Source of the DNA: Telopea speciosissima
Taxonomy: Eukaryota > Streptophyta > Magnoliopsida > Proteales > Proteaceae
Assembly (NCBI RefSeq): GCF_018873765.1
Contig: NC_057919.1
Span: 20,996,698 to 21,060,697, forward strand
Direction of reading: 5' to 3'
DNA length: 64,000 bases
In this document: piece by piece, positions 40,855 to 60,536 of the stretch
Numbering within the stretch: the stretch's first letter is position 1
How the letters are laid out: every line of letters starts with the position of its first letter
Notes under the pieces: generated by a model
Database searches by the model: none
Told to the model about the DNA's origin: nothing
The model's input: the letters and a program-made list of their open reading frames with translations, nothing else
Program-made: the position numbers and the translations under genes

Positions 40855-43800
40855 ATGGGAGTGGAGAAGCAACTGTTGAGGGCTGGAACTGGTCCCAAAC
40901 CTGTTCCTGGTCAGAACGTCACAGTCCACTGCACGGGATTTGGTTCGCATACCTCTCTCCCCGCCTTTGCATATTCTTCCCTTTTTTCCAGTCGATTTCA
41001 ATTTCCAATTTCGTATTTGTTGTCGCTGTTTAATAGTTTTCTTTCATAAGAAGCTCATTAAATATCCAATTTTTTTTGGGGTACGAACAGTCGGACATTA
41101 CTGCACAACTTAGTTCTTTATCTCTGTAGATCTTTCTTGTTAGAATGGGTAAAATCAGAGGCAGACCACCCATCATTGAATCGGGTTTGGGATTGGGAAT
41201 ACAGGGGATGAGTTGATAGTGTTCATAAGATGACGGTGAAGTAAAATAATGAAAACTTTCTTCATCGTTTCTCAGAAGATCACTGGCTGGAGATACCTAA
41301 CCAGCCAAATAAGACAACTTCATGTCACCTGGCTTTAGATCGTTTAATATTGTGTTCCTTACGACTTAATTTGTTACTAATGGGTCTCATTTCAACCTGT
41401 TCTGGGCTATGCATCCTCATCGGCTGATTTTCTTTAGCTTTTTTTGCTCAATGTAGGTAAAAACGGTGATCTCTCGCAGAAGTTTTGGAGGTTAGGAGTT
41501 TCTCGTCGTCTTCTCATCCAAAAAACAAATTACTTGCTTTCCCTATTCCCTTGGGTTTGTTTCTTATCTTTTTTTTTATTTTTGTATCTTAGCACAAAAG
41601 ATCCTGGGCAGAAGCCTTTCTCGTTTAAAATTGGCCAAGGGTCGGTTATCAAAGGTAACTATAAGAACTCTCTTTCTCCCCTGTGAGTGCCAATCAAAAA
41701 ATTTGATAATCAAAATTTGGTTTTTAGTTATTTTTTATGGGAGTTATGGAATTTTTAGATTTGAGAAAAATCCCAACATTAGAAAGTTGAAAATTTTACA
41801 TACCGCTGAAAATTTGTTCTTGAATGGGAGGGAGGTTGACTCTTTGTCCTTTTGGAATTTGATTTTCTAACTGTTTTTATTGGATTTAAATTTAGATTTG
41901 CTTATTTGTAAATAAAATAGCTTAAGTAAATGAAATAACAAATACAAATACATTTACTTAAATAATATTTGTTATAAATAAGGTGGTTAAAAAAAGGCAT
42001 CTTACACACCAAAAAAAAAAAGGTTTAGGTTGAAACTCCCATGTTTCGTCAAGTTTCGATTGGGATAAGTGAATTTATATAAGTGGTTCAAGTTGAAACT
42101 TGCGAAATTACCGAAAGATGACCGAAACATGTTGAAACTAGGTACAAAGTGGTATCACATTAATGTTTCTTCTCGGTTTCTTGCGAAACCGAGATTTAGA
42201 ACCATGCTCAGGGGACATCTGATTTTTGGTCAGATGTAGGGTACTTTGGCTGTTAGAAGACACAACTGTTTGATCTTGTTGTAAGACCAAATCACCAACC
42301 AAACCTCTCAGGCATAAAGCTTGTTTTACTGCTTTTGTTGTCGCCATGTACTTAGCTTCTGTGGTAGACAAGGCAACCGTAAACTGTAATGTTACATTCT
42401 AGCTAATGGCGCAAGTAGAGAGTGTGAAAACATAGCCCGTCTACACTAAGTAACAAGGAAGCTTGACTGAGCAAAGAAGTCAAGAAACGAAGCTGCTTCT
42501 CTAATAGCCCCGCTGAATAGGAGGGCAAAGGCTTTTTTGCTTTGTAAATCAATATATTAAAAAAAATGGGAGACAGAATGCTAACTGGTCGCGTTTGTTG
42601 CACAGATTCCATGCAACGTTGTTGCTAACCGTTGGATTGGAAATATCTATTACGGACTGTTGATATAATTAATTAAAGAAACAAATCCAAATTGTAATTA
42701 ATACGTATTCTAACCGTATGTGGAGAACTGTTTTAAAGGTAACAAATATCCTAAATTCTCTCTCTAAGACATCATCTTTTCGTATTTATCTCTCATTATC
42801 TCTCTCTTTCTCTCCATTAATTATCTTCTTTTTCTGAAAAAACCTTTGATGCATTAATTCTCTCTCTCTCTCTCTTGATTCTGTTGAGTTTTTTTCTGCA
42901 AAACAAAACTGTTTGTGTTCCATAACCTGAGAAGGATTGAACATCATTTTTATTCTTCCCTTTTCTTTTTTTGAAGGAAAAGGAATGTGGATCAGTTGGA
43001 ACTGTTGCCAAATTGTTTAAACCATCCAGCTAAATTTAAACATGGAACACCTCAATACTGAAAAAGCCAATACAAACCAGAAACTTGAATAGAGTTCACC
43101 GACATTGACCATCTTAGAGCAATCCTTAAAGATCTTCCAAAACCATCAGAATTTGAAGCTTTATTTCCCAAAAATTTACTAAACTTGTATCTTGCCAACT
43201 GCATCCTCATGTGACCATGTCATAGTCTCTGTTTCAGTTGCCACTGAAACACCAATGCTTGCAGTAGACCTTTCCTTCTTTCCTTACTTTACTCTAAATC
43301 ACTCTCTTTGAAGCATGTAAAATAAATAAACCTCAGTTACCTACCTAAGTAATTCTGTTATGATTCCTGTGGAAAACTTAAATAAAACTTGCTTTCATTT
43401 TTTACTTAACTAAATTTATTCCTCATTTGAGTTGGAGTTAATTGTAGCCTTGTGGGTGTTTGACATTCTTTGTACCTCCTCTTTTTCTTGTTCAGTTTTA
43501 GTTGGGTTTAAACAGTCCGGTAGGAGGCCCTTCACCAGATTTTGCAGAAAAAAACTCAACAGGTCTCCACATACGGTTAGAATACACATTGATTGCAATT
43601 GGGATTTGTTTCTTTATTTAATTATATCAATGGTATGTAATAGATATTTCCAATCCAACGGTTAGCAGCTATGCTGCGTGGAATCCGTGCAACAAACGTG
43701 ACCGGTTAGCGTTCTTTCTCCCAAAAAATATTTAGAGAGAGGGGGCTTCAAGTTCTTAGGAAGAGCCGTACGAGGCAGCTCACGTATGGTTCGGGAGCCA

Positions 43801-46800
43801 AACCCCAGCACAGGGGCTTAGGTCAACACTTCATAATAGCCAGTCATCAATTGGAAGAGGGCAAGATGGTGATGAATTGCGATTGGTCCAAACCTTCGAC
43901 CAGTGGCTTCTTGTGGTCCAAATCAACAGCATAATTGGAATTAATGAAACCAACAACAGTTCCCAAACTAAGGAGTCAATTACAACCAGTTGGTTGATGT
44001 TGTAGCTGCCTCAGTGCAACAGTCAAACAAAATTACAAGAAAAAAGAGGGGAAAAAGTACAGAAAATGGCAGAAGTCTGTATATAAATCGTTGCTTGCAT
44101 GGAGCATGACAAAAAGGTAGAGTGCTTACTGATTTCAAGATGGATGTGTTATATTCTTCATTGTTTTTTGTGCCCCTAGTGCCAGAATTGTTTGCCATAG
44201 TTGGAATTAAATGATTGGAGTACCACAGTTGCTGATATTGTTGTAACGTTGTTGTTTCTGTTGCTTCAAGAATTCACGAAGATTTATATGTACGTGCTGA
44301 TACAGCATATGGCATACATAGATAGGTGTTCTTGTTGATTTTGTAAGGTAACACATCAGAGGGTTGAAGCGGATTGACTAATTCAGCCTTTTTTCTGGAT
44401 TTTACTGTGGTTTAGTTTTTATGATTTTTTGGTTACTCTTTTTTATCCCCTCATCTTTCGCTGCAGTTGGTCACTTTTACACTAGTGCAGTAGGTTGCAT
44501 GGATTCCTTTGAAGTGTAAGCAGGACGTCTGAAAAATACACCCAGAGGGTGCTAGTTTTACAGTTATTTGGGAGATTTAGTAATATTTTAATCCATTGGT
44601 GCATAGAAATTCTATCTACAAAGTTGTTTTGAAAAGACAATATATCTTAAACACTGTTATCCCTTGGCTCTCTGGGGTGCTTGAGTTCCTTACCAAGTGG
44701 AAAAGAGGTAGAGAGGTGGGGGATATGGAAGATAACTTGAAAACCAAATTCTTACCTATGTACTCTTTGTTCTCTTCTCATTATATTGATTTTGGGGTTT
44801 AGTATTAACAAGGAAAAGAGAAGATATCAAAATGCACAAAGGTAGTGTTCCAGTTTTCTCGCACTCTACCCACCTTGAAGGCTCATAACACAAGTGAGCC
44901 ACCCATCGATGCCATAGATTGGTCAACCATGTTAATGGGTGTTGCTATCTCCATACCTCTCTTCTTGAACTGAATGATCAGGATGGCATGGATCAGTGCT
45001 TCATTGAGGTCTTTGATTCACCATAGCCGGAAGGCTGGTCCTATCAATTTCATACAATTTAAAATGGGCTGAGTTTCATGGATTTGTCCAAAGGTGATCT
45101 CTGAATTTTTTTTTTAAAGAAATGAAAAATTGTACACCTGGAGTTTGATGTGGTGGTACTAACTGTACCACTTCCCCGTCTATTTTCCATTTTTTCTTGG
45201 ACAGTATTTCTGTAGATTTACTTCTTTCCGGTTTTTCCTTTTCCCCCTTTTTTTGGTAAACATCGAAAATTCATGTCTGCATCACTAGCGTTGTATGTGG
45301 TGTGAGTAAGAACTCAGTGATGGTGTTTTAATTGTTTTTTTTGAGGCATATGCATAACATTATTGTAGTGCAAGTGAAGTCATCACATCATTTCAAGCTA
45401 TCCACATCTCTTCTCTTTCCGAATAAATGTGCTGCGGTAGACTCTTGTTTGAATAGGGTGATACATTCCATGTAATTAGGACCTGGCAAATTGGCAGTGG
45501 TTTCTTTTGCTAGTATTTGAAGGAAGGTCCTGTAGGCGTTAAAGCCTTTCCATTTGTTATTAATTCAATCTGTTCTGCCATATTTTAGGATGGGATGAAG
45601 GTGTGTTGGGGATGCAAGTAGGAGAAAATGCTCGTCTTCAGGTAACATTCATTTCTCTTGATTGGTATTTTTTGGTATTTAACTTATGGGAGGGGATCTA
45701 CACGCCGCTTACATGTGATAGCATATCCCATGCCAAGCCAGTAGGCACATGGGAGGGGGTGCCTCACGATTTGATTACGAGGGTCCCACATGGTCAGGGT
45801 GGAGGGATTGTGAGAGAGCGATGTACTCTCTGCAGCGTGTAGATCCTTTTCCCATTACTTATTGAAACATTAATTTTTTGGTTTGTAAGTTTGTTATTTG
45901 AGAATTTTAATCACGTTCCATAACAGATTTGGCTTTGGAAAATTATGTCAAATAATGCGAATGTTGATTTGGGTATAAGTGTTATGGCTGAAATATGCTC
46001 AGGATTTCAGTAGTGGGGAGTAAATACTTTCAGAAATGAAGCAGAATCTATGCGCACTTATTTATTCGTGTGCAATTTTACTTTTATTGAGGTTCTCTCT
46101 TGTTCTTCTTATACGCCCTCTTACACTTTGATTGGTAAGTCACAATCTCTGTGCGTTGGGGAAAAGGGACTGCCCGGGGGGGGGGGGGGTTATCAACATG
46201 ATGGATTGCTGATTATTTTTTGTAGCAGCTCAATTGGAAGCAAGACACTTGGTCACTATGACACTTTTCTGCAACTCCCCAAAGACCACCCAAACTCAGG
46301 GCTGGGTAGGATGGGGTTGGGATGGGTGAGTAAATAATAGAAGCAGACATGATTGTGAGCTGTTGGTTGTAATTGCTTGACTTATGAACTACAGTCACTA
46401 TAAAACTCTGAAATGTACTTGTTGCAAGGCAGATTCAAATCTTGTAGGTAATGGCCCAAAATTTACTATGGTTCATAAGGGTGAAAACTAGGGTTGGGTT
46501 TGAGGGTGTCAAAAGGGAATCGGAACCGACTGTGTACAGATGAACTGAATGGAACCGAATCCTAACAGTTCAGGTGTGGTTATAACAAATAAGTTATAGT
46601 TCGGTTCGGTTCGGTTAAGAACCGGAAAGTCTGTGGTTTTAAACCGTTACAAAACCAAATTGCCGAATGTAACCGGAACCGAATAAACCGAATCTAAACC
46701 AAACCCTAAACCTTGGTTGGACCATTCAATAATCCAAAACAGCTAAACCCTAACTCATTTCGATCTTCCATTTCCAGAACAGCAAATCCCTGCTCTTCAT

Positions 46801-49800
46801 CTCTTACTCTTCCACTCTTTGTCAGTTTGTCTCTTCAGCTCCGTCAGTCTGCCCTCTTCCTGATGCTTATCTTTGCTTTCTTCTCTTGCTACGTCTAAAG
46901 AATTCCACAAGCCAAGAAGAGATTGAAGCCCTAACATCGTTCAAACTTAATCTCCGCGAAACTCTTGGCGCGTTAAACGGCTAGGATTCACCCACTCCTT
47001 CTCATGGAAACAAATCTAGGTCAAAACTGCGGGTTTCGACCAAGACAACTTGGTTTCACAGCTAACTGGGACGAAACCTTAGGGGAGTTTTAAAAATACC
47101 AAGTTTCGACTGGTTTCGACAATATTTCGGAAATTTCGAAGTTTCGACAAAAAAATATCAAGTTTCGACCAATTTTAACCAATTTCAACTAACCCAGTTT
47201 CGACCACCCCATCACATGTCGAGTTTGACCAAAAAAATACCAGATTTTGACCAAATTTCGGTGTCTGGCTGGTTGAAACCTAGGTCGGCACCTAATTCTT
47301 TATCCTTGGCTTCTACCCCAGTTGCAACTAGAGAATACCTTTGTCCACTTGCCGTTGAAGTCCATGATCTGAAATTGAGAGTGCTCACAGTTCCAAGTAG
47401 ATCTCTTTCCTTTTTTAGCCTAAGGTTAGGACAAAAGTTATCTGAATTGCGGAACGGACTCCCGTGGATCTCAGAGCTCATTTTAGGGGTCAGACAAGGA
47501 GAGTTTGGAAACTGAAGGAAAAAAGGGTTTCTGCTGTTGTGTGTTGAATGTTGTTTGAGAACTTCCCTGAGGTTAGTTTCTTTCAATGCTTCTTTTTTCT
47601 CTCTAGTGTTTAGAATTTTCTGGATAGGGAGAGCTTTATTTTCTTATAATTGCTTTTATTGGGACTTTATTTATTGTCATGACATTTTTTGAATTTCATT
47701 AATCATTCCTTCATTGTGTTGTGCTCGAATGGGAGTGTTTTCTTGAGTGGAGTAATATTTTTCTTTTGAGTTTCACATACAACACATGAACATGGTTGAG
47801 AATGTGACATTGCTCTTCTTGTTGATTTACCATCCTTATTGGGGTTCTTCCAAGTTGATCTACTGTGCACATTCCCCCTACATGTGGTGCAATGAACTTT
47901 AGTTCCTGCCCGGGCTTTTAAGAGTGATGTATTTCTAGATTGGTAGGAGACCAACTAGAAGCCAATAACCAGGACTTGCTATGAACAGGGTAGTTCGGGT
48001 AGGTCAAAAATAGGTGTTTTGGTCAATTTAGGGTCAGGGTTTAATGAAACCTAGGGTTTGATGGTAGGGTTATGCTAAGTTGATGTAGGGAAGTCCTCCG
48101 GTAAAGGTGATGTTAAGTTTTAATGGAGGGAAGTGTGCTGGAATGAATTGGCAGCTAGGTGCAGGTTAGGGTTTCGGGATTTTGGAAAAGAAGAAAGATA
48201 TATTTTTTAGAGTTTATGATGGTCAGATGAGGGAATCACTTGGATCGAGTTTTCCTTCGTGTGAGAGGGGGATTCGATCAAAGCTTGGTGTGATTTGGCT
48301 GGCTGGTTTGGTCTGGGCAGAATTTAGGTGTTGGGAAAAATTGAAAACAAAGGGAGAATTTTAGGGTTTGAGGCTGTAAGAAGATTAGAAGAAGAATTGT
48401 TAGGGATGGGGATGATTCAAACTCTCACTGTTGTTGTAGAAATTCCTTGGCAGAAGCTTGCTTGATTGTAAAGCTTAAATAAAAATCAAAACTTGAACTA
48501 GAACTTGAATGAGAGCTTCAAAGAACAACCCGGGCTTCACACTGTAAAGTGTCGATTGAATCAAACTCCAATCCCACCAGCCTTGATCAAACACAGAATA
48601 AATCTTCAATGGAAGAGAGCAGCAGAAAGCTTTTTCATTATCAAAATTCGTGTTCAGTACTTGCCCCCCTTACAACGTTATAAAAGACTCAAAAATAGAC
48701 TCCTACACTAAAAAGGAAAGGCCTAACCCAATCCTTAACCTATTAGGTAACTTAAACTGACTAGGAAACTGAAATAGACTCAAATAGGAGTCCTAATCCA
48801 GCCCCACTAAACACTTAAAAGGAAAATTACTAAAATCACTTAAATTGAACCATTGGTTGAACCGGTTCAATTTATAAACAAAAACACCAAAATAAAACCA
48901 AGTATAGAACTAAAACAACTAATCCCGTATGCAACCTATTTACCCGTATTTTAGGTCTATAAAGTGGCCTATTACATAGAAACCCATGGGATCAAAGGCC
49001 CACCATGTATATAACCCAATCCTAGACTTATTCCTAAGCAAAGAAGCTCAGTTTGGTGATAAATCTGCATTAAAGAGAGTTAAGAAATGTGAAAGGTTGG
49101 TGCAACATTTTGCTCTAGTTATTTTGCTTTTTGGTCCTAATTTAGTTGCCCATCTTGCTGAATGGATTTAGATTTTAGATGTTCATATCTTCTGAATTTT
49201 GTATTTTTCTTAAGGGAAAAAGAACATGGGAGTGTTGGCATAGGCCATACTACCGGACAGAGAACTACATCCCCTTTTCTTAATTTGTGTAATCAATAAA
49301 TTGGGATAATTTGACTGTTATTTATTATTCAACCATTTAAAGGACTAGTAAATTCTATTTCCACAGGTTGGATTCATTGTTGGTAGTTTATACCTTTCTT
49401 TCCTATCTATACAAGTTCATTGTAGCTGAAACAAATAATTTTGAGGGTGCATCAATATAAGTTTTGTTGATGCATCAATGCAATCTTAAGCTTGCTTTAA
49501 TATGTTTCATTATGTTGTATTTGTAGGTGTTTTAGATATATACTGATAAAATGGAATGGTCTAAAATTGAGATGAAAGAGTCGAATGATGGTACTTTGGT
49601 ACTACAACCCCGTTTGTTAGTTTAACGTTAGAGGGTGAAAGTTGCAATGCTACCCATCTTGAGAAAAAGCCTATGGCTAGGGTAGTAGCTTGTTGGACAA
49701 TTAACTGGTTCAAATCAACAGATCCGACAGATTGTGCGGATAGAAAGCCTCAAGCTCAATATGCCAAGTGTGGATAGTTGTTCATGGCTGACCCCATAAA

Positions 49801-52800
49801 AAATGGGACCTCCAACTTGAGCAATTATAAAAAAAGGTGTCCTAAGCATGAGAACAAGGGCATAGGCTAAGTGTTTATGCAACCATCTATTGGGAAGTTG
49901 GCTTTAAAGGATTTGAAGATTAACACCAATGTTGTTTGTGAGATGTTTTTGACTTTAATTGTAAAAAACGAACTCCCTTTAAAATTTGTGGAGTACGAAG
50001 ATTTTAAGAAGTTGATGCTATATGTGTATGCTGATTACATCTCATTAGCAGAAACACACTTTTGAGTGTTGTTCAAAAAGTATTCAAGAAGTAGAACACT
50101 ATCAGAGAGGCAGTCAAAAGTTCACTGGGAGTGTTTTAGCAACCATTAATTTCTGGACCTTCATCTCTAATGATGGATATATGACACTCACAACCCACTA
50201 TATTGATAGGCCATGGGTTTTACACAGGAAATTGATAAAATTTACTGTCGGACTCCTCCACACTCGAGTGCATATATTTGTGAGATAGTTGACAAGATAT
50301 TGATTGAGTGAGGGATTGAAGGGAGATTGTTTTTTTGTAGCAGTAGACAATGCAAGTGCAAATGATGCATTTGTTCTTTATTTCAAAACAGATCGGAATG
50401 CGAAGAACGCATTGGTGTGTAAGGGGGGGATTCTTTCATGTTCATTGTTGTGCACATGTCTTGAACCCCATAGTGCAAGATGATCAAATTGATTAATAAA
50501 TCAGTTTAGAAGGTTTGAGATAGTGTCAAATTCGTCAAAAGTTCTCAAACTAGGAAGTTGAGGTTTGCAAAAAGTTGTAAGCACATGGGAATGACCACTA
50601 AGAGAGGCTTGCATGGAGATGTGAGCATGAGGTGGAATTTCACCTATCAAATGCTTGATGATGCGTTGTTTTATCGGCAAGCTTTTGACAACTTAGAGAA
50701 GTTAGACACGAACTACACAGATTGCCTAACTTCTGATGAATGGGCAAAAATTTTAAAAATTGTAAAGTTTTTGAGACCTTTTGATGAGATCACGAAGGTG
50801 TTGTCTGGTTTTAAGAATCTAACATTTAACTTGCATTTCCGAAGTGATATACAACTTTAAATGATGGATCTTTGGTTGTGGATGATTTTATAATAAAAAT
50901 CATGAAATAGTTTTGGCTACAAGTTTTGACTGCTGGTTTTAAGACCCAAATGACCAAATTAGGTCTCGAACCTTCTAGGAAACCTTATTTTAGATCCTCT
51001 AAACATAGTGAAACCCTTAGATTGTAAAGAACATACCCAAAATTGTAGTTTGGTTTCAGGCCCTAGGTTGATAGTATATACTATACAACTAAGTATTTAT
51101 TTATTTATTTATTTTTTTTTCGCAAAACTTCATTCCCTGGGGAAGATGATATACCTTCAACTTTCAATCTTGCAAAAAACCTTCACAAATGCAGCAAATC
51201 GTCGTTCTAGATGCGTTCCAATACAGCCCAATATCTTGTTTAACAAAGATATGATGGTATTTGGCAAAAAATCACAAAAATTGAGGTTTTCTTGGATCTT
51301 TCCATTTTTAGAGTCAAAACTAGTGAAATAGATCGAAATTTCGACCCATTTCGATTGAAATCGTGCATTTTATACAAAGGGAATGTATTGTTTCATCCAA
51401 AACGATACCAAAACTCGAAACATGGTCGAATTTTTGACCGAAACTTGGTAATACTCAGGTATCACACTTGTTTTGTTTCGACCTTTGTCAAAACTGAAAG
51501 ATTTTGCGAAATTACAGCCAGAAGTGCTTGGGATTATAGAATTGGTCCTCTACAATATAAAAGAAAACCCAAAAATACTTAGCTCATGGCCATACAACCC
51601 ATTGGGCACTGAAAATTAAGCTAGAATATTCGTTAATTCTTGGTTGAGTTTGACCCAACCAATAGCATGGCTTGCTACCTGCCTTCTTGTTTTTCTGAAC
51701 TGCATCAACCAAAGCCTCAACATTCTTTAGGAGCAATTTATTTTGGCATTAATCAATCACCCTACCCCCAGTACTGAATGCTGACTCAGATGCAACCATG
51801 AACATAGGAATCACCAATATATCACCAGCTAGCCAAGATAAATAAGGAAATTGGGCCTGACCTTCCAATATGTTAGAACATATTACTTGGCATCCTTGGT
51901 CCACAATTTTCTTGGCTCTTTAAGATACTGGTCCAATTCAGGCTTGTCACCGGTGTTGGTCATCTTCTTTTTGCCCAATTAGCGAATGGATTTGAACCCT
52001 CTTCAACAACACTAGTCAAAGATGGTATACACTTGTATTCCCATAAAGTCAGCCTAAAGCTGGTCTCACATGGTCAACAATCTCATCAGTTAGTAAGAGC
52101 TATTAATTGTGTAGCTGTTTATATGCTTACTGAAGAATTTCCAACCTGTAGCGAGTATAAAACACTGCAAATGATAAAACCAATTAATGTTTTCCCCCAT
52201 ATTTATTGAACTTTTCTCTTATGGCACATACCATCTCCATCATAAATCACCTCCAAGCAAGGATCCATCGTTTAAAGTTGAATGAATAAGCACCACATTC
52301 AGAAATACAAGTTGGATGTTGGATACTTGGAACCAAATAACACTTTCATTATTTCATCAAAGTCTCAAACTTTATAATTTTTTCTAATCTTTGCCCATTC
52401 AATAGGGGTAGGGCAATCTGTGTAGTTCTTGTCTAAGCCGATAGAACAAAGCATCATCAAGTATTTGGTAGGTGGAATTCCACCTTACTCACATTTCCAT
52501 GCAAGCCCCTCTTAGTGGTCATTCCCATATGCTCACTACTTTCTGCAAACCTCACCTTTCTAGCTTGAAAACTTTTGACAAACTTGACACTGTGTCGAAC
52601 CTTTATCAATCAATTTGATACTATCTTACACTATGATGTTCATGACATGTACACAAAAACGATGATGAAAGAATTCCTCTTACACACTAATGCATTCTTC
52701 GCTTTAGGTTTGTTCTCAAATAAATAAAAAATACATCATTCGTACTTGCATTGTCTAATGTTACAGAAAACAATCTCTATTCAATCCCCCACTCGGTCAC

Positions 52801-55334
52801 TATCTTGTCAACCGTCTCACAAATATGTGCATCCGAGTGTGGAGGAGTCAAAACAATAAGTTTATCGATTTTTTTGTGTAAAACCCATAATCTGTCAGTA
52901 TAGTGGATTGTGAATATCATTTATCCATTATTGTAAATTTGTAGATTGAGGTCCACAAATTAGGGTTTGCTAAAACACTACCAACATAATTTTTAACTAC
53001 CTCTCTGATAGTGTTGTCCTTAAATACTTTTAGAAAAAAAAAAGGGGCATACCCAGTGCACAAGGCTGTTGCCACTGTGGGGTCTGGGGAGGGTCTTAAT
53101 GTACACAGCCTTACCCCTGCTTTCGCAGAGAGGCTGTTTCCAGTCTTAAATACTTTTGAATATCACTCTTGTTTCTGCTAATAAGTTGTAATTAGAACAC
53201 ACATATAACATCAATTTCCTAAAATCTTTGTATTCCACACATTTAAAAGGAGTTTATTTTTTACAACTAAAGTCCAAACTATCTCACGAACAACATTGAG
53301 GTCAATCTTCGAATCCTTTAAAGTCAACTTCCCACTAGATGGTTGCATAAACATATGACTATGTCGTTGTTGTCATGCTTACACACCTTTTCATGTGATT
53401 GTTCAAGCAAGAAGGTCCCAGGGTCAACCATGTACAATTATCCACGCTTAGTACATTGAGCCCTAGGCTTTCTATCCGCATAGTCTTTCAGATCTGCTGT
53501 TTTTAACCAGTTAATTGTCCAGCAGACTATATTGCCTTAGCCTTGGGCTTTTTCTTAGGATGGATACCAGTGTCACTTTCACCCTCAAACATTAGGGGTT
53601 GTGGAACCAAAATACACCATTATTTGACTCTGTTAAACCATTCCATCTTACCGGTATAGTAGAATATAGAATATCTAAAATACTTACTATATAATATGAT
53701 GAAACATATTAAAGCAAGCTCAAGATTGTACTGATGCACCCTCAAAATTACAACAAACTTGTATAGATAGGAAAGAAAGTATGAAGTACTAACAAGAATC
53801 CAACCTGTGGAAATAAAGAGTTTATTAGTTCTTAAATAGTCGAATACTATATAGCAACCAAATGCTCCCAATTTATTGATTCTATAGATAAAGAAATATA
53901 GAATATTTGGAAAAGATATGACTAACTAAAATTTAAATTCATTCAACAAGATGGACAACTAAATTAGGACGAAAGAGCTAAATTAAATGCAGCAAGATGT
54001 TCACATTTCTTAACACTCTTAAAAGCCAGGGAGGGAACTAAAGCCTGTTACACATTTATGAGGAATACGCACAGGTGATCAACTTGGGAGAACCCCCAAT
54101 AAGGATGGTAAATTAGCAAGTTGAGCTATGTCACATTTTCAACTATGTTCATATGTTGTATGTAAAATTCAAAGCAAAAGATTCCTCCACTCCACAAAAC
54201 TCTTCCATTATAGTGAAGGAATGATTAAAATTCCATGACAGTAAACGAAGTCCCAACTGAAGCAATCAGATGAGAATAAAGCACTCCAGATCCAGAAACG
54301 TCTAAACACTAGAGAGAAACCAAAAACATTGAAAGAAACTAATCTTAGAGAAGCTATCAAACAACATTCAACAAATCCACGTGAGTAGAACCTAAGCAGA
54401 AACCCTCTTTTCCTTTGGTTTCCAAACTCTCACCATCTCTCCCATAAAATGAGCTCCGAGATCCAAGAGAGTCCATTGAAATAACTTTTGTCCAAACTTT
54501 CTGCTACAAGGTTTTGCTGTTTTGGATTGGTGATTGGTCTAAGTGCCTAACCAAGGTTTAGGGTTTGGTTTAGATTCGGTGATTTGGTTTTGCAAACAGT
54601 TTAGAACCACCTGTTTTCTGGTTTTTAACCGAACTGTACCAACCAAAACTGAACTGTTTGGTTGGTTTGGCTGTAAACAGTCGGTTCCGGTTCTGGTTTC
54701 CTTTTTGCACCATTACCATTCCCTTGAGTTAAACTTTGATTGCAGTGGCCTAGGGAACATGCGGGGCTGGGTGGTCACAGATAGAGTCTTTAGGTACAGT
54801 CTGCGAGATGTGGCTGAGATCAAGCCTGTAATTTATGCATTGAATCTCTCATCTACTAGCAGTGAATCCAAATGCCTGCAGAGGGTGACTTGGCATTAGT
54901 TATAGGTTGGTTAGCTTTACAAGGCAGTGCTCATGGGCTTAAGTAATAAATTTGTCATAAAACAGTCAATTAAATTTCAACTTCTAAATTTCTCACCACA
55001 TAATAGAAAGGGCAAGCAAATCCATGTGTTTCCCATTGAACCGACTTAGGTATGGAGAACCCGATGGATTTATTCTCTTTTTTGGTTGTACAGCTGGATT
55101 CCCGTACATCATTACTAGGGATCAAGCATGAGTTTGTATGCTCTTGTGTGCTTACTGTGTTGAATGCATCTCCTCTTAGCATTGAACCAAAGCATTTTTG
55201 ATGTATCTAATCATCTTCGGTTGCTTTTGCAGTGCTCTCCTGACTATGCGTATGGTCCTAATGGATTTCCAGCATGGGGAATACTGCCCAATTCGGTTTT
55301 GGTTTTTGAAATTGAAGTCCTTAGCGTGGAGTGA
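40855..55334 (+). CDS. FKBP12: FKBP12 peptidyl-prolyl cis-trans isomerase, five exons
   Basis: Exons 40855-40942, 41457-41490, 41593-41654, 45589-45641 and 55233-55334 join with GT-AG introns and unbroken phase into 112 residues, the exact length of plant FKBP12. It starts 'MGVEKQLLRAGTGPKPVPGQ', and has 'HCTGFGKNGDLSQKFWSTKD', 'FSFKIGQGSVIKGWDEGVLGM' (active-site V-I-W), 'CSPDYAYGPNGFPAWGILPN' and ends 'VLVFEIEVLSVE'. Cys26 and Cys80, the pair known to form a disulphide in plant FKBP12, are both present. The enzyme catalyses proline isomerisation in the cytosol/nucleus and is the receptor for FK506/rapamycin-type ligands, binding TOR when rapamycin is bound; plant forms often bind the drug weakly. 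Intron 3 is 3.9 kb and intron 4 is 9.6 kb, both swollen by transposons; the coding parts are intact. The start is the only ATG giving the conserved N-terminus. Confidence 0.96.
42020..42215. repeat. Dispersed 'GTTTCGA' repeat, FKBP12 intron 3
   Basis: Recurring GTTTCGA/GTTGAAAC words ('atgtttcgtcaagtttcgattggg', 'ccgaaacatgttgaaac', 'tcggtttcttgcgaaaccgag'). Same family as at 47.0, 51.3 and 60.7 kb. Non-coding. Confidence 0.5.
42225..42400 (-). mobile_element. Ty1/copia RNase H fossil fragment
   Basis: The minus strand encodes a short stretch of copia RNase H ('STTEAKYMATTKAVKQAL', 'LRGLVGDLVLQQDQTVV', 'NSQSTLHLTKNQM'). Only this small part of the polyprotein is present and no LTRs lie beside it; a broken, old fragment in FKBP12 intron 3. 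Confidence 0.75.
42568..43722. mobile_element. TIR DNA element of the GGGAGA family, 1155 bp, FKBP12 intron 3
   Basis: Left GGGAGACAGAATGCTAACTG, then 'gtcgcgtttgttgcacagattccatgcaacgttgttgctaaccgttggattggaaatatctatta' and its inverse at the right end '...AACGTGACCGGTTAGCGTTCTTTCTCCC' form TIRs of about 170 bp. Flanks AAAAAAAAT and AAAAAATAT match at 8 of 9 positions (9-bp TSD). A further inverted pair 'tgttgagtttttttctgcaaaac' (42884) against 'ttttgcagaaaaaaactcaaca' (43538) shows that about 140 bp of CT-rich DNA was added to the left arm. The 0.6-kb core has no transposase. This longer relative links the small MITEs of the window to a MULE-type family. Confidence 0.85.
43763..43792 (+). other. 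Group II intron domain V remnant (organellar DNA insertion)
   Basis: GAGCCGTACGAGGCAGCTCACGTATGGTTC matches the domain V consensus of organellar group II introns: GAGCCG...CGTATGGTTC pairs as a 10-bp stem with G-U wobbles, holding the AGC triad, a two-base CA bulge and a short upper stem. Plant mitochondrial introns have this 'GAGGCAGCTC' variety. With flanks (about 43740-43830) it is probably a nuclear insertion of mitochondrial or plastid DNA; the parent intron was not identified. Confidence 0.6.
43831..45588. other. FKBP12 intron 3, 3' part
   Basis: Intronic sequence with no recognised gene or repeat apart from T-rich tracts. The branch/acceptor region before exon 4 is '...ttctgccatattttag'. 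Confidence 0.4.
45688..45853. mobile_element. MITE in FKBP12 intron 4, 166 bp
   Basis: GGGAGGGGATCTACACGCCG and, inverted from the right end, GGGAAAAGGATCTACACGCTG are the TIRs. Flanks TTAACTTAT and ATTACTTAT agree at 7 of 9 positions, a decayed 9-bp duplication. It lies only 46 bp behind the 5' splice site of intron 4 without touching it. Confidence 0.75.
47030..47280. repeat. Dispersed 'GTTTCGA' repeat inside the hAT left copy
   Basis: 'gcgggtttcgaccaagacaacttgg', 'agtttcgactggtttcgacaatatttcggaaatttcgaagtttcgac' and similar; same family as at 42.0, 51.3 and 60.7 kb. Confidence 0.55.
47930..49078. repeat. Segment of about 1.15 kb present only in the left hAT copy
   Basis: The right hAT copy reads without a break from 'cttttaagagtg' to 'ttaagaaatgtgaa' (reverse of 54003-54030), while the left copy has these at 47918 and 49079 with about 1.15 kb between. 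'aagag' stands at both junctions, as a target duplication would. The content is LTR-like or unclassified; a solo LTR-type insertion is the likeliest reading. Confidence 0.45.
49214..49274. mobile_element. 61-bp MITE deletion derivative with perfect 9-bp TSD
   Basis: GGGAAAAAGAACATGGGAGTG, then 'ttggcataggccatactaccggacagagaactacatcccc' is one arm of the 7016 subfamily plus a dozen bases of the other end. Flanked by exact TTTTCTTAA (49205-49213, 49275-49283), so both termini are original and only the centre was lost. Confidence 0.8.
51280..51520. repeat. Dispersed 'GTTTCGA' repeat between the two hAT copies
   Basis: 'gatcgaaatttcgacccatttcgattgaaatcg', 'ctcgaaacatggtcgaatttttgaccgaaac' and 'tttgtttcgacctttgtcaaaactg'; same family as at 47.0 kb. 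Confidence 0.5.
51650..54720 (-). mobile_element. hAT transposon, right copy of the inverted pair
   Basis: Minus strand. The outer end at 54720 mirrors the left copy (reverse strand 'ggtgcaaaaaggaaaccagaaccggaaccg', then 'accgaatctaaaccaaaccctaaaccttggtt'). Inward it is colinear with the left copy: 54430-54003 with 47470-47930, 53600-53400 with 49590-49800, and 52600-52400 with 50520-50700. It goes further at the 3' side: 51660-51850 gives the hATC dimerisation domain ('SWLAGDILVIPMFMVASESAFSTGGRVID', 'LLKNVEALVDAV'). Many stops and frame changes; inactive. A SINE sits inside (53032-53144). Confidence 0.8.
53032..53144 (-). mobile_element. Au-type SINE, 5'-truncated, 13-bp TSD
   Basis: Flanked by exact CTTAAATACTTTT (53019-53031, 53145-53157). 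The minus strand reads 'ggaaacagcctctctgcgaaagc' to 'gtgcactgggtatgcccc' and ends in a T run, the conserved 3' part of the widespread plant Au SINE. The tRNA-like 5' head with box A/B is missing. Confidence 0.82.
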
Positions 55335-57991: not shown

Positions 57992-58453
57992 TTAAGGGCT
58001 AGTAGTTGCAGGTGGTGGGGAGAGAAAAGGGATTGTGGTAGGGATGGAAGGAATTGTTGTTGGGATAGTGGGCAATGGAGGCAGAGCAACCTTTGGAATT
58101 GTGGGCATGGTGGGCAGTGTAGGCATTGGTGGCAATGTTAGCTTAGGCAAAGAAGAAGGTATCTGGGTACTTGGCAGAGGAGGCATTGTGGTGGGTATTG
58201 GCATATTGGGAATAGTAGGCAAAGGAGGCACCTGGGTTGTCGGCATTGGTGGCAATGTTGCCTGAGGCAACGACGGCATTGCCGGCAATGGAGGCATTGT
58301 TGCCTGAGGCAAGGTTGGGATGGTGGGGAGAGGCAGCACAGGGGGCGGAGCTGCTGTATCCAATAGACGGCGTGCCGCTGTGCTCGTACTGATGCTTGAC
58401 AATGACAGAGCCACGATCAAATACAGAAGGAAGCAGTGTTTGGAAGCAGCCAT
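57992..58453 (-). CDS. Secreted proline-rich cell-wall protein (PELPK-like), copy 1
   Basis: 153 residues from ATG 58451-58453. Residues 1-28 are a signal peptide ('FLLYLIVALSLSSISTSTA'), followed by 'ARRLLDTAAPPPVLPLPTIP' and then tandem 5-10 residue units of the types LPPLPTIP, LPPMPTxP, LPQATxPP, ending 'PFLSPPPATTSP'. About a third of the mature chain is proline and there is almost no charge: a cell-wall (hydroxy)proline-rich structural protein of the PELPK/PRP kind. The start was chosen because MAAS(K/R)H is conserved in both whole copies; an upstream in-frame ATG at 58486 is not. A minus-strand TATA box lies about 105 bp upstream. No intron. Confidence 0.85.
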   Translation of the reverse strand: MAASKHCFLLYLIVALSLSSISTSTAARRLLDTAAPPPVLPLPTIPTLPQATMPPLPAMPSLPQATLPPMPTTQVPPLPTIPNMPIPTTMPPLPSTQIPSSLPKLTLPPMPTLPTMPTIPKVALPPLPTIPTTIPSIPTTIPFLSPPPATTSP

Positions 58454-58557
58454 GGCAGGAAGATGAGAGTTGCAAATTAAAACCAAGCAAGAAGACTAGT
58501 ATAGAAGATTTGATGATTTTTCTGTGCGATGAGAAGAATGATAACAGGTAATGGGGT

Positions 58558-59233: not shown

Positions 59234-59695
59234 CTAAGGGCTAGTGGTTGCAGGTGGTGGGGAGAGAAAAGGGATTGTGGTAGGAGGGATGGAAGGAATT
59301 GTTGTTGGGATAGTGGACAATGGAGGCAGAGCAACCTTTGGAATTGTGGGGATGGTGGGCAGTGTAGGCATTGGTGGCAATGTGGGCATAGAAGAAGGCA
59401 TCTGGGTACTTGGCAGGGGTGGCATTGTGGTGGGTATTGGTATGTTGGGAATAGTAGGCAAAGGAGGCACCTGGGTCGTCGGCATTGGTGGTAATGCTGC
59501 CTGAGGCAATGATGGCATTGCCGGCAATGGAGGCAGTGTGGCCTGAGGCAAGGTTGGGATGGTGGGGAGAGGCAGCACAGGGGGTGGAGCTGCTGTATCC
59601 AATAGACGGCGAGCCGCTGTGCTTGTACTAATGCTTGACAATGACAGGGCCACCACGATCAAATACAGAAGGAAGGAGTGCCTTGAAGCAGCCAT
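59234..59695 (-). CDS. Secreted proline-rich cell-wall protein (PELPK-like), copy 2
   Basis: 153 residues from ATG 59693-59695, close to copy 1: signal peptide ('SFLLYLIVVALSLSSISTSTA'), 'ARRLLDTAAPPPVLPLPTIP', then LPPLPAMPSLPQA, LPPMPTTQVPPLPTIP, 'PPLPSTQMPSSMPTL' and the same 'SPPPATTSP' end. Differences from copy 1 are a Val insertion in the signal peptide, a short deletion near the middle and one Pro insertion near the end. Likely secreted and wall-bound, with prolines open to hydroxylation. TATA box at 59798-59803 on the minus strand. One of at least three tandem copies, so recent duplication is clear. Confidence 0.87.
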   Translation of the reverse strand: MAASRHSFLLYLIVVALSLSSISTSTAARRLLDTAAPPPVLPLPTIPTLPQATLPPLPAMPSLPQAALPPMPTTQVPPLPTIPNIPIPTTMPPLPSTQMPSSMPTLPPMPTLPTIPTIPKVALPPLSTIPTTIPSIPPTTIPFLSPPPATTSP

Positions 59696-59797
59696 GGTTG
59701 GAAGATGAGAGATGCAAATTAAAACCAAGCAAGAAGACTGATATAGAAGATTTGATGATTTTCTATGAGATGAAGAATGATAACAGGTGATTGGGTT

Positions 59798-59803
59798 TTT
59801 ATA
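59798..59803 (-). promoter_or_regulatory. TATA box of proline-rich copy 2
   Basis: The minus strand reads CTCTATAAAAACCC about 105 bp upstream of the start codon, as at copy 1. Confidence 0.6.
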
Positions 59804-60536
59804 GAGGGCTATAAACATTGAAGGAACCAATGGGAAGTGGAAGAAACAAGAATGACTTGAGTTTGTTGAGATGTGGTTGAGAGCAGTGGAGAGAAGTACT
59901 TGTTAGTTCACCTTCTCTCTTTACCAAAAAAAAGTTCACCTTCTCTCATACACAGTTTTGGAAAAACAAATGTCAAATACAAACGTTCGGAGTTGGAAAG
60001 CTAACTCTAAACTCAAAAGAGTCGAGAAGTTTAACATACGCACGCTATGGCTTCAACCTACAGCTACGTGGTTAATTGGATGGAAAGTAGTCAATCCTGT
60101 AGATTTGTCTTTTGTATCATGTTTTTCGAATTAGATCTGTGGCCCACGTGTATTATTAATCTATTATTTTTTTCCATTAACAAGACTGCTAGAGAGCTAC
60201 AATTGGGTGGGTGAAACTTGATACCTTGTGTCCTGATCTATATCATGTCGCCGACTTGCTATTTGTAATTTGGTATGAGATGAGGTTTTTTTTTTTTTTT
60301 TTTTGATAAGATGAGATGGACCTTTATCTCCTGAGGTTTGTTGACTGATACGGTTGTGCAGTTCCTTTCATAAGGGGGGGCTGAAATGACCATTCCACAT
60401 CTTAACCAAACATACTGCCCGAGTGAGGTCCACTCCCTTTTATTAGAGGCACTATGAAACCGTACCGGACAGGAGAACCGCAGATGATAAAAATTCAAAT
60501 GAGATGGGCGGTGGAAGGTTTAGAGGCTAGACAATT

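What the first reader, a model, noticed from the sequence alone, without database searches (positions are those of the whole stretch)
46500..54720. An 8-kb pair of inverted hAT copies sits inside FKBP12 intron 4
Seen: 46500-50870 (+) and 51650-54720 (-) are colinear in opposite orientation, from the matching GGTTCGG-rich ends through the BED and core transposase relics. Both outer ends are the same transposon end, so the unit looks like one giant foldback with about 0.8 kb between the copies, within an intron of an intact 112-aa FKBP12. A transcript through it could form a long imperfect duplex. Inference: either two independent head-to-head insertions or a macrotransposon-like unit; intron silencing (as with IBM2-dependent heterochromatic introns) may be needed for full-length FKBP12 mRNA.
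Basis: partly seen in the sequence, partly recalled or inferred. Interest (0 to 1): 0.72.

Follow-up and report, generated by a model that had tools for sequence, protein, structure and literature searches.

The report
Old inverted transposon pair in intron
Two decayed copies of one plant hAT jumping gene lie back to back in a large intron of an intact FKBP12 gene; they are sister copies and could fold the pre-mRNA into a roughly 2,000-pair hairpin, but the evidence points to an old local jump rather than a working device.

Summary
Two hAT relics in opposite orientation, A (46501 to about 50900, +) and B (about 51708-54715, -), lie in the 9,591-bp intron 4 of an intact 112-aa FKBP12, colinear, main blocks 74-76% identical (E to 2.5e-170). 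The outer ends are hAT 5' ends without a common 8-bp target duplication, and the flanks beyond them are not inverted copies: neither one macrotransposon nor a segmental inversion fits. The spacer is mostly a dispersed repeat. Among 29 copies compared, A and B are sisters (98.3/100; transversions only 87.9/91). Their differences fall evenly on codon positions (72/80/84, p=0.55), so they decayed without selection after the split. The FKBP12 paralogue's 3,387-bp intron 4 lacks the pair. Best reading: one old element copied itself locally in inverse orientation, and both inner 3' ends were lost. The computed RNA forms about 2,000 A-B pairs with 13 uninterrupted helices of at least 21 pairs (none with B flipped). 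Expression, small RNA and methylation could not be tested. New member of a known kind.

The parts
40855..40942 (+). FKBP12 exon 1 (CDS part)
41457..41490 (+). FKBP12 exon 2
41593..41654 (+). FKBP12 exon 3
45589..45641 (+). FKBP12 exon 4
45642..55232 (+). FKBP12 intron 4 (9,591 bp, GTAACA...TTGCAG) holding the pair
46501..50900 (+). hAT copy A: 5' TIR TGAGGGTGTCAAAAGGG at 46501, 5' non-coding part, transposase relic; truncated before the C-terminal part; no 3' end found
   Evidence: by eye similarity to relatives runs on to about 50906
46969..47412 (.). stretch of A not aligned to B, including a TTTCGACC-type repeat (47049-47148 resembles 42193-42092)
47927..49066 (.). 1.14-kb insert in A, absent from B; part (48481-48909) resembles intron 3 of the C5 paralogue (61%)
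50909..51520 (.). spacer: dispersed repeat, not part of either copy
   Evidence: 63 matches listed including the window itself, 40 of 942 candidates scored
51708..54715 (-). hAT copy B: 5' TIR (reverse complement TAATGGTGCAAAAAGG) ends at 54715; transposase relic; open frame continues to 51587; no 3' end found
51752..51919 (-). Dimer_Tnp_hAT (PF05699) relic in B, E=8.1e-8
   Evidence: 1 of 5 pieces of A and B matched a Pfam family
53036..53150 (.). SINE-like insert in B (Au-type by recall), 91-93% like four copies elsewhere, flanked by direct repeat AAAAGTATTTAAG
55233..55334 (+). FKBP12 exon 5 with stop

Best explanation
An hAT element, probably already defective and moved by transposase from elsewhere, inserted in FKBP12 intron 4 after the FKBP12 gene pair had formed, and a second copy was placed a few kilobases away in inverse orientation by local transposition (or both came at once from one source). 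Since then both copies have decayed without selection, lost their facing 3' ends, and gained a SINE-like insert, a 1.1-kb insert and a dispersed repeat between them. Shown: the anatomy, sister relation among the copies compared, even decay, separate ends, absence from the paralogue, computed hairpin. Inferred: local transposition, trans mobilisation, the order of the losses and gains, that the intron is spliced without harm.
For: A+B sister among 29 copies, 98.3/100, 87.9/91 on transversions; shared transversions A+B against g1+g2 11, the two conflicting splits 0 and 0. The 5' non-coding block finds its full length only in the partner arm; other matches are fragments: C5:22.14 Mb (161 bp or less), five matches of 54-60 bp, and 156-214 bp at 69-70% on C1, C11 and C4 (all 10 and all 6 candidates scored). 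Codon-position differences A-B 72/80/84 of 416/415/415, p=0.55, against 87/75/191 between subfamilies g1 and g2. Relatives are complete hAT elements: TIR TAAGGGTGTC with an 8-bp duplication at both ends in 2 of 4 examined (C8 GTAAAAAT twice, 4,502 bp; C2 CCTTCACA/CCTTCACG), one end only legible in the other 2; hAT RNase-H domain E=1e-27 in an open relative. Similarity between A and B stops at the 5' TIRs: outer flanks score 13.4 against shuffled mean 11.6, maximum 19.4. Another pair of the family, about 20 kb apart in opposite orientation on C2, is sister in the full tree (86.1/92). Arm divergence K2P 0.18 against 0.284 for pooled FKBP12 paralogue non-coding blocks; no pair in the paralogue intron.
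Against: No 3' end was found for either copy, so no complete TSD proves either insertion. Only the best 40 of 4,081 and 40 of 919 candidates were scored, so a closer relative could be missed. The C2 pair is not recovered as sisters on transversions only. Linkage of nearest relatives in the family is marginal without A and B: 6 of 27 on the same contig against 2.5 expected, p=0.053; 8 of 29, p=0.019, with them. A dead ancestor rests on weak signs (shared substitutions 10/15/14 by codon position against 19/16/47, p=0.046; two shared lesions that could be parallel).
Confidence: 0.68

Rival explanations
1. Two unrelated chance insertions of the same, once more numerous, subfamily; all other copies have since been lost.
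For: Both ends have their own flanks; intron 4 of the paralogue took its own 710-bp hAT element with TSD CCCTTGAT, so introns of this gene do receive hATs. An even codon pattern is also seen between two g1 copies (38/40/49), so evenness alone does not prove a local event.
Against: No other copy with the full 5' non-coding block was found in the genome; sisters in one intron is unlikely by chance.
Confidence: 0.2
2. One giant foldback or macrotransposon with two 5' ends inserted as a unit.
For: Both outer ends are the same element end; A and B are sisters.
Against: Outer 8-mers do not match (0 of 8 in register), although arms differing by about 16% should leave most of an 8-bp duplication legible.
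Confidence: 0.04
3. Inverted segmental duplication by template switching or breakage, not transposition.
For: No 3' TIR found at the inner ends; sisters; inverse orientation.
Against: Similarity ends at the TIRs on both sides and the flanks are not copied.
Confidence: 0.07
4. The pair is kept as a hairpin that makes small RNA or shapes the intron.
For: Fold -3,453 kcal/mol with 2,004 colinear A-B pairs and 13 helices of 21 or more, against -2,153, 314 A-B pairs and 0 when B is flipped. Transitions that keep G-U pairing exceed the others 130 to 95, p=0.023.
Against: Any inverted pair this similar folds so; the G-U excess also fits strand-biased mutation of a transcribed intron and is 94 to 70 on the polarised counts printed (my sum); frames decay freely and the arms carry inserts.
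Confidence: 0.08

Closest known systems
Plant hAT (Ac-like) DNA transposons
   Same: 5' TIR of the TAAGGGTGTC type; relatives with both TIRs and 8-bp TSD, about 4.5 kb; hAT RNase-H domain in a relative and Dimer_Tnp_hAT in B
   Different: A and B are dead and truncated, without a recognisable 3' end
Closely linked Ac/Ds pairs and alternative transposition in maize (PMC3744419; abstract and passages seen)
   Same: nearby hAT copies; inverted arrangements are within the known repertoire
   Different: no flanking host duplication seen here; the event is ancient and inferred only
TE-bearing heterochromatic introns controlled by IBM2 (rice, PMC7145194; abstract and outline seen)
   Same: long intron filled with TEs inside an intact gene
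   Different: no methylation or RNA data here

Membership tests
hAT transposon | hAT transposase domains | tested here: met
   Dimer_Tnp_hAT in B, E=8.1e-8, 1 of 5 pieces scanned; hAT-like RNase-H in an open relative, E=1e-27. A gave no Pfam match and is filed by its similarity to B and to relatives.
hAT transposon | terminal inverted repeats at both ends | tested here: not met
   5' TIRs at 46501 and 54715; between the arms nothing fits a 3' TIR better than 3 mismatches of 13, inside the spacer repeat. They are therefore truncated relics descended from hAT elements, not complete elements; complete relatives have both ends.
hAT transposon | 8-bp target site duplication | tested here: inconclusive
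   cannot be seen without 3' ends; met in 2 of 4 relatives examined, C8 (GTAAAAAT) and C2 (CCTTCACA/CCTTCACG), only one end legible in the others
macrotransposon / foldback unit | one TSD around the whole unit | tested here: not met
   GTTGGGTT against CCATTCCC
IBM2-dependent heterochromatic intron | heterochromatin marks and altered polyadenylation on loss of IBM2 | not testable with these tools
   no methylation or RNA data
hairpin small-RNA locus | small RNA of set sizes from the stem | not testable with these tools
   structure alone computed

The most novel reading that the evidence does not exclude
The intron hairpin is read with FKBP12, diced into small RNA, and serves as a standing silencer of the younger hAT copies (about 75-78% like A and B over the transposase part) or of its own intron, with pairing partly kept by selection as the G-U excess hints.
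Probability: 0.07. Interest if true: 0.62.

Novelty: new member of a known kind. Interest (0 to 1): 0.33.

Why it matters
It is a datable case of an apparently local inverted hAT pair inside an intron of an intact gene, with a paralogous intron as reference, and it leaves a roughly 2,000-pair predicted duplex in a pre-mRNA. That makes it a usable test case for whether plants dice or silence old intronic inverted TE pairs.

Tried and rejected
Rejected: one-unit insertion (no common TSD); segmental inversion (flanks not copied); chance similarity. The hAT pair in the paralogous intron: absent; a separate 710-bp hAT element with its own TSD lies there. Looking for the lost 3' ends: the B tail does not resemble one relative's 3' UTR (13.6 against shuffled mean 13.4); the 3' TIR pattern finds between the arms only a 3-mismatch match inside the spacer repeat at 51007 for A and nothing under 5 mismatches for B; one-mismatch 8-mers at 51048, 51130 and 51643 look like chance. 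A first Pfam scan of A read through stops in one frame found nothing. Linked nearest relatives as proof of local jumping: p=0.053 without A and B. Literature: all 10 searches used; no paper on this locus appeared in their capped listings, which is no proof of absence. Local preference of Ac/Ds is recalled; the passage found in PMC3260210 speaks of low-copy targets, not of nearby ones.

Full report
Setting. The window is C4:20996698-21060697 of a genome of 822,943,500 bases in 1,287 contigs. A table in PMC13080361 (passages seen) gives 823 Mb for Telopea speciosissima; the identification as that species is mine, from size, and not proven. FKBP12 is intact: five exons, 112 aa, GT-AG introns; intron 4 is 9,591 bp.

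Observation. The inverted pair is real: 16 inverted seeds and five colinear blocks, four of them 74-76% identical with E down to 2.5e-170, the 5' end block 67%. Without gaps the arms differ at 15.8% of 2,305 positions (K2P 0.18); in the trimmed family alignment they are 81.1% identical over 1,304 positions. The figures differ because the methods treat gaps differently. A carries a 1.14-kb insert and a further stretch not aligned to B; B carries a SINE-like insert with a 13-base direct repeat.

What the copies are. B keeps a hAT dimerisation relic (E=8.1e-8, 1 of 5 pieces scanned). Among four close relatives examined, two show TIRs and 8-bp duplications at both ends (GTAAAAAT twice; CCTTCACA/CCTTCACG; about 4.5 kb), the others one end only. 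The outer ends of A (46501) and B (54715) are the 5' end of such an element; no 3' end was found for either. The spacer 50909-51520 is a dispersed repeat. The 187 bases between it and the end of alignable B (51521-51707) remain unassigned; an open frame covers part of them.

How the pair arose. I compared A and B with 27 of 28 merged family copies. A and B are sisters with support 98.3/100. Because methylated transposons can share C-to-T changes by chance, I repeated this with transversions only: 87.9/91; shared transversions A+B 11 against 0 and 0 for the two conflicting splits with g2, 14 against 4 and 2 with g3, 12 against 2 and 0 with g4. The 5' non-coding block is found at full length only in A and B, with fragments elsewhere. 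A-B differences are even over codon positions, 72/80/84, while subfamilies g1 and g2 differ mostly at third positions, 87/75/191: both arms have been free of selection since they split. Two copies of the young g1 burst also show no bias (38/40/49), so this does not by itself prove a local event. Shared A+B changes are 10/15/14 against 19/16/47 on the g1 side (p=0.046). Both arms have a stop at the same codon of what I take, from recall, for the BED-type finger (TAG, TAA; no Pfam match), and an Asp-to-Asn change at a motif that I recall as catalytic (read by eye). Both hint that the parent was already dead, but parallel change is possible. The outer 8-mers do not match and the flanks are not copied, which speaks for two insertion junctions and against a single unit or a segmental inversion. 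Two g1 copies on C2, about 20 kb apart in opposite orientation, are each other's nearest relatives in the full tree (86.1/92), but not on transversions only; the linkage test is marginal (6 of 27 against 2.5, p=0.053 without A and B; 8 of 29, p=0.019 with them). Local transposition is therefore the likeliest reading, not a proven one.

Dating. The FKBP12 paralogue on C5 has an intron 4 of 3,387 bp without either arm, but with its own 710-bp hAT element and TSD CCCTTGAT. Paralogue non-coding divergence, pooled over four alignable blocks, is 0.284 (intron 2, 0.403 over 93 positions, not pooled) against 0.18 for the arms, so the arms split at about six tenths of the age of the gene pair, if rates were equal and the alignable parts are comparable.

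What it may do. RNA folding of 46501-54715 gives -3,453 kcal/mol, with 2,004 of 2,991 pairs in the colinear A-B stem and 13 uninterrupted helices of at least 21 pairs, the longest 37. With copy B flipped the energy is -2,153, 314 of 2,612 pairs join A and B, and no helix reaches 21. This was one control, not a set of shuffles. Transitions that keep G-U pairs exceed the others, 130 to 95, p=0.023; the counts polarised by g1 sum to 94 against 70. This is weak and fits strand-biased mutation in a transcribed intron as well. Whether the intron is methylated, diced or affects FKBP12 mRNA could not be tested, and a second FKBP12 gene exists.

Verdict. A real, old, probably local inverted hAT pair, of a known kind; good as a test case, with no evidence of function.

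Noticed in passing
window 42567-43723: FKBP12 intron 3 holds an element with 166-nt terminal inverted arms (87%) around 825 bp.
   Followed up: no
C5:61057048-61057757 (L067/L078): A 710-bp hAT-type element with perfect TSD CCCTTGAT in intron 4 of the FKBP12 paralogue.
   Followed up: partly
C2:26414900-26419389 and from C2:26439201: Second inverted pair of the same hAT family, about 20 kb apart, sisters in the full tree (86.1/92) but not on transversions only.
   Followed up: partly
C5:22138168-22138260 and 22147069-22147229 (L075, L076): Two fragments 82-86% like the arms' 5' non-coding block, split by about 9 kb; origin unclear.
   Followed up: partly
window 57992-58486 and 59234-59830 (-): Two similar proline-rich ORFs in tandem downstream of FKBP12.
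   Followed up: no
window 46176-46189: Run of 14 G in FKBP12 intron 4, upstream of copy A.
   Followed up: no
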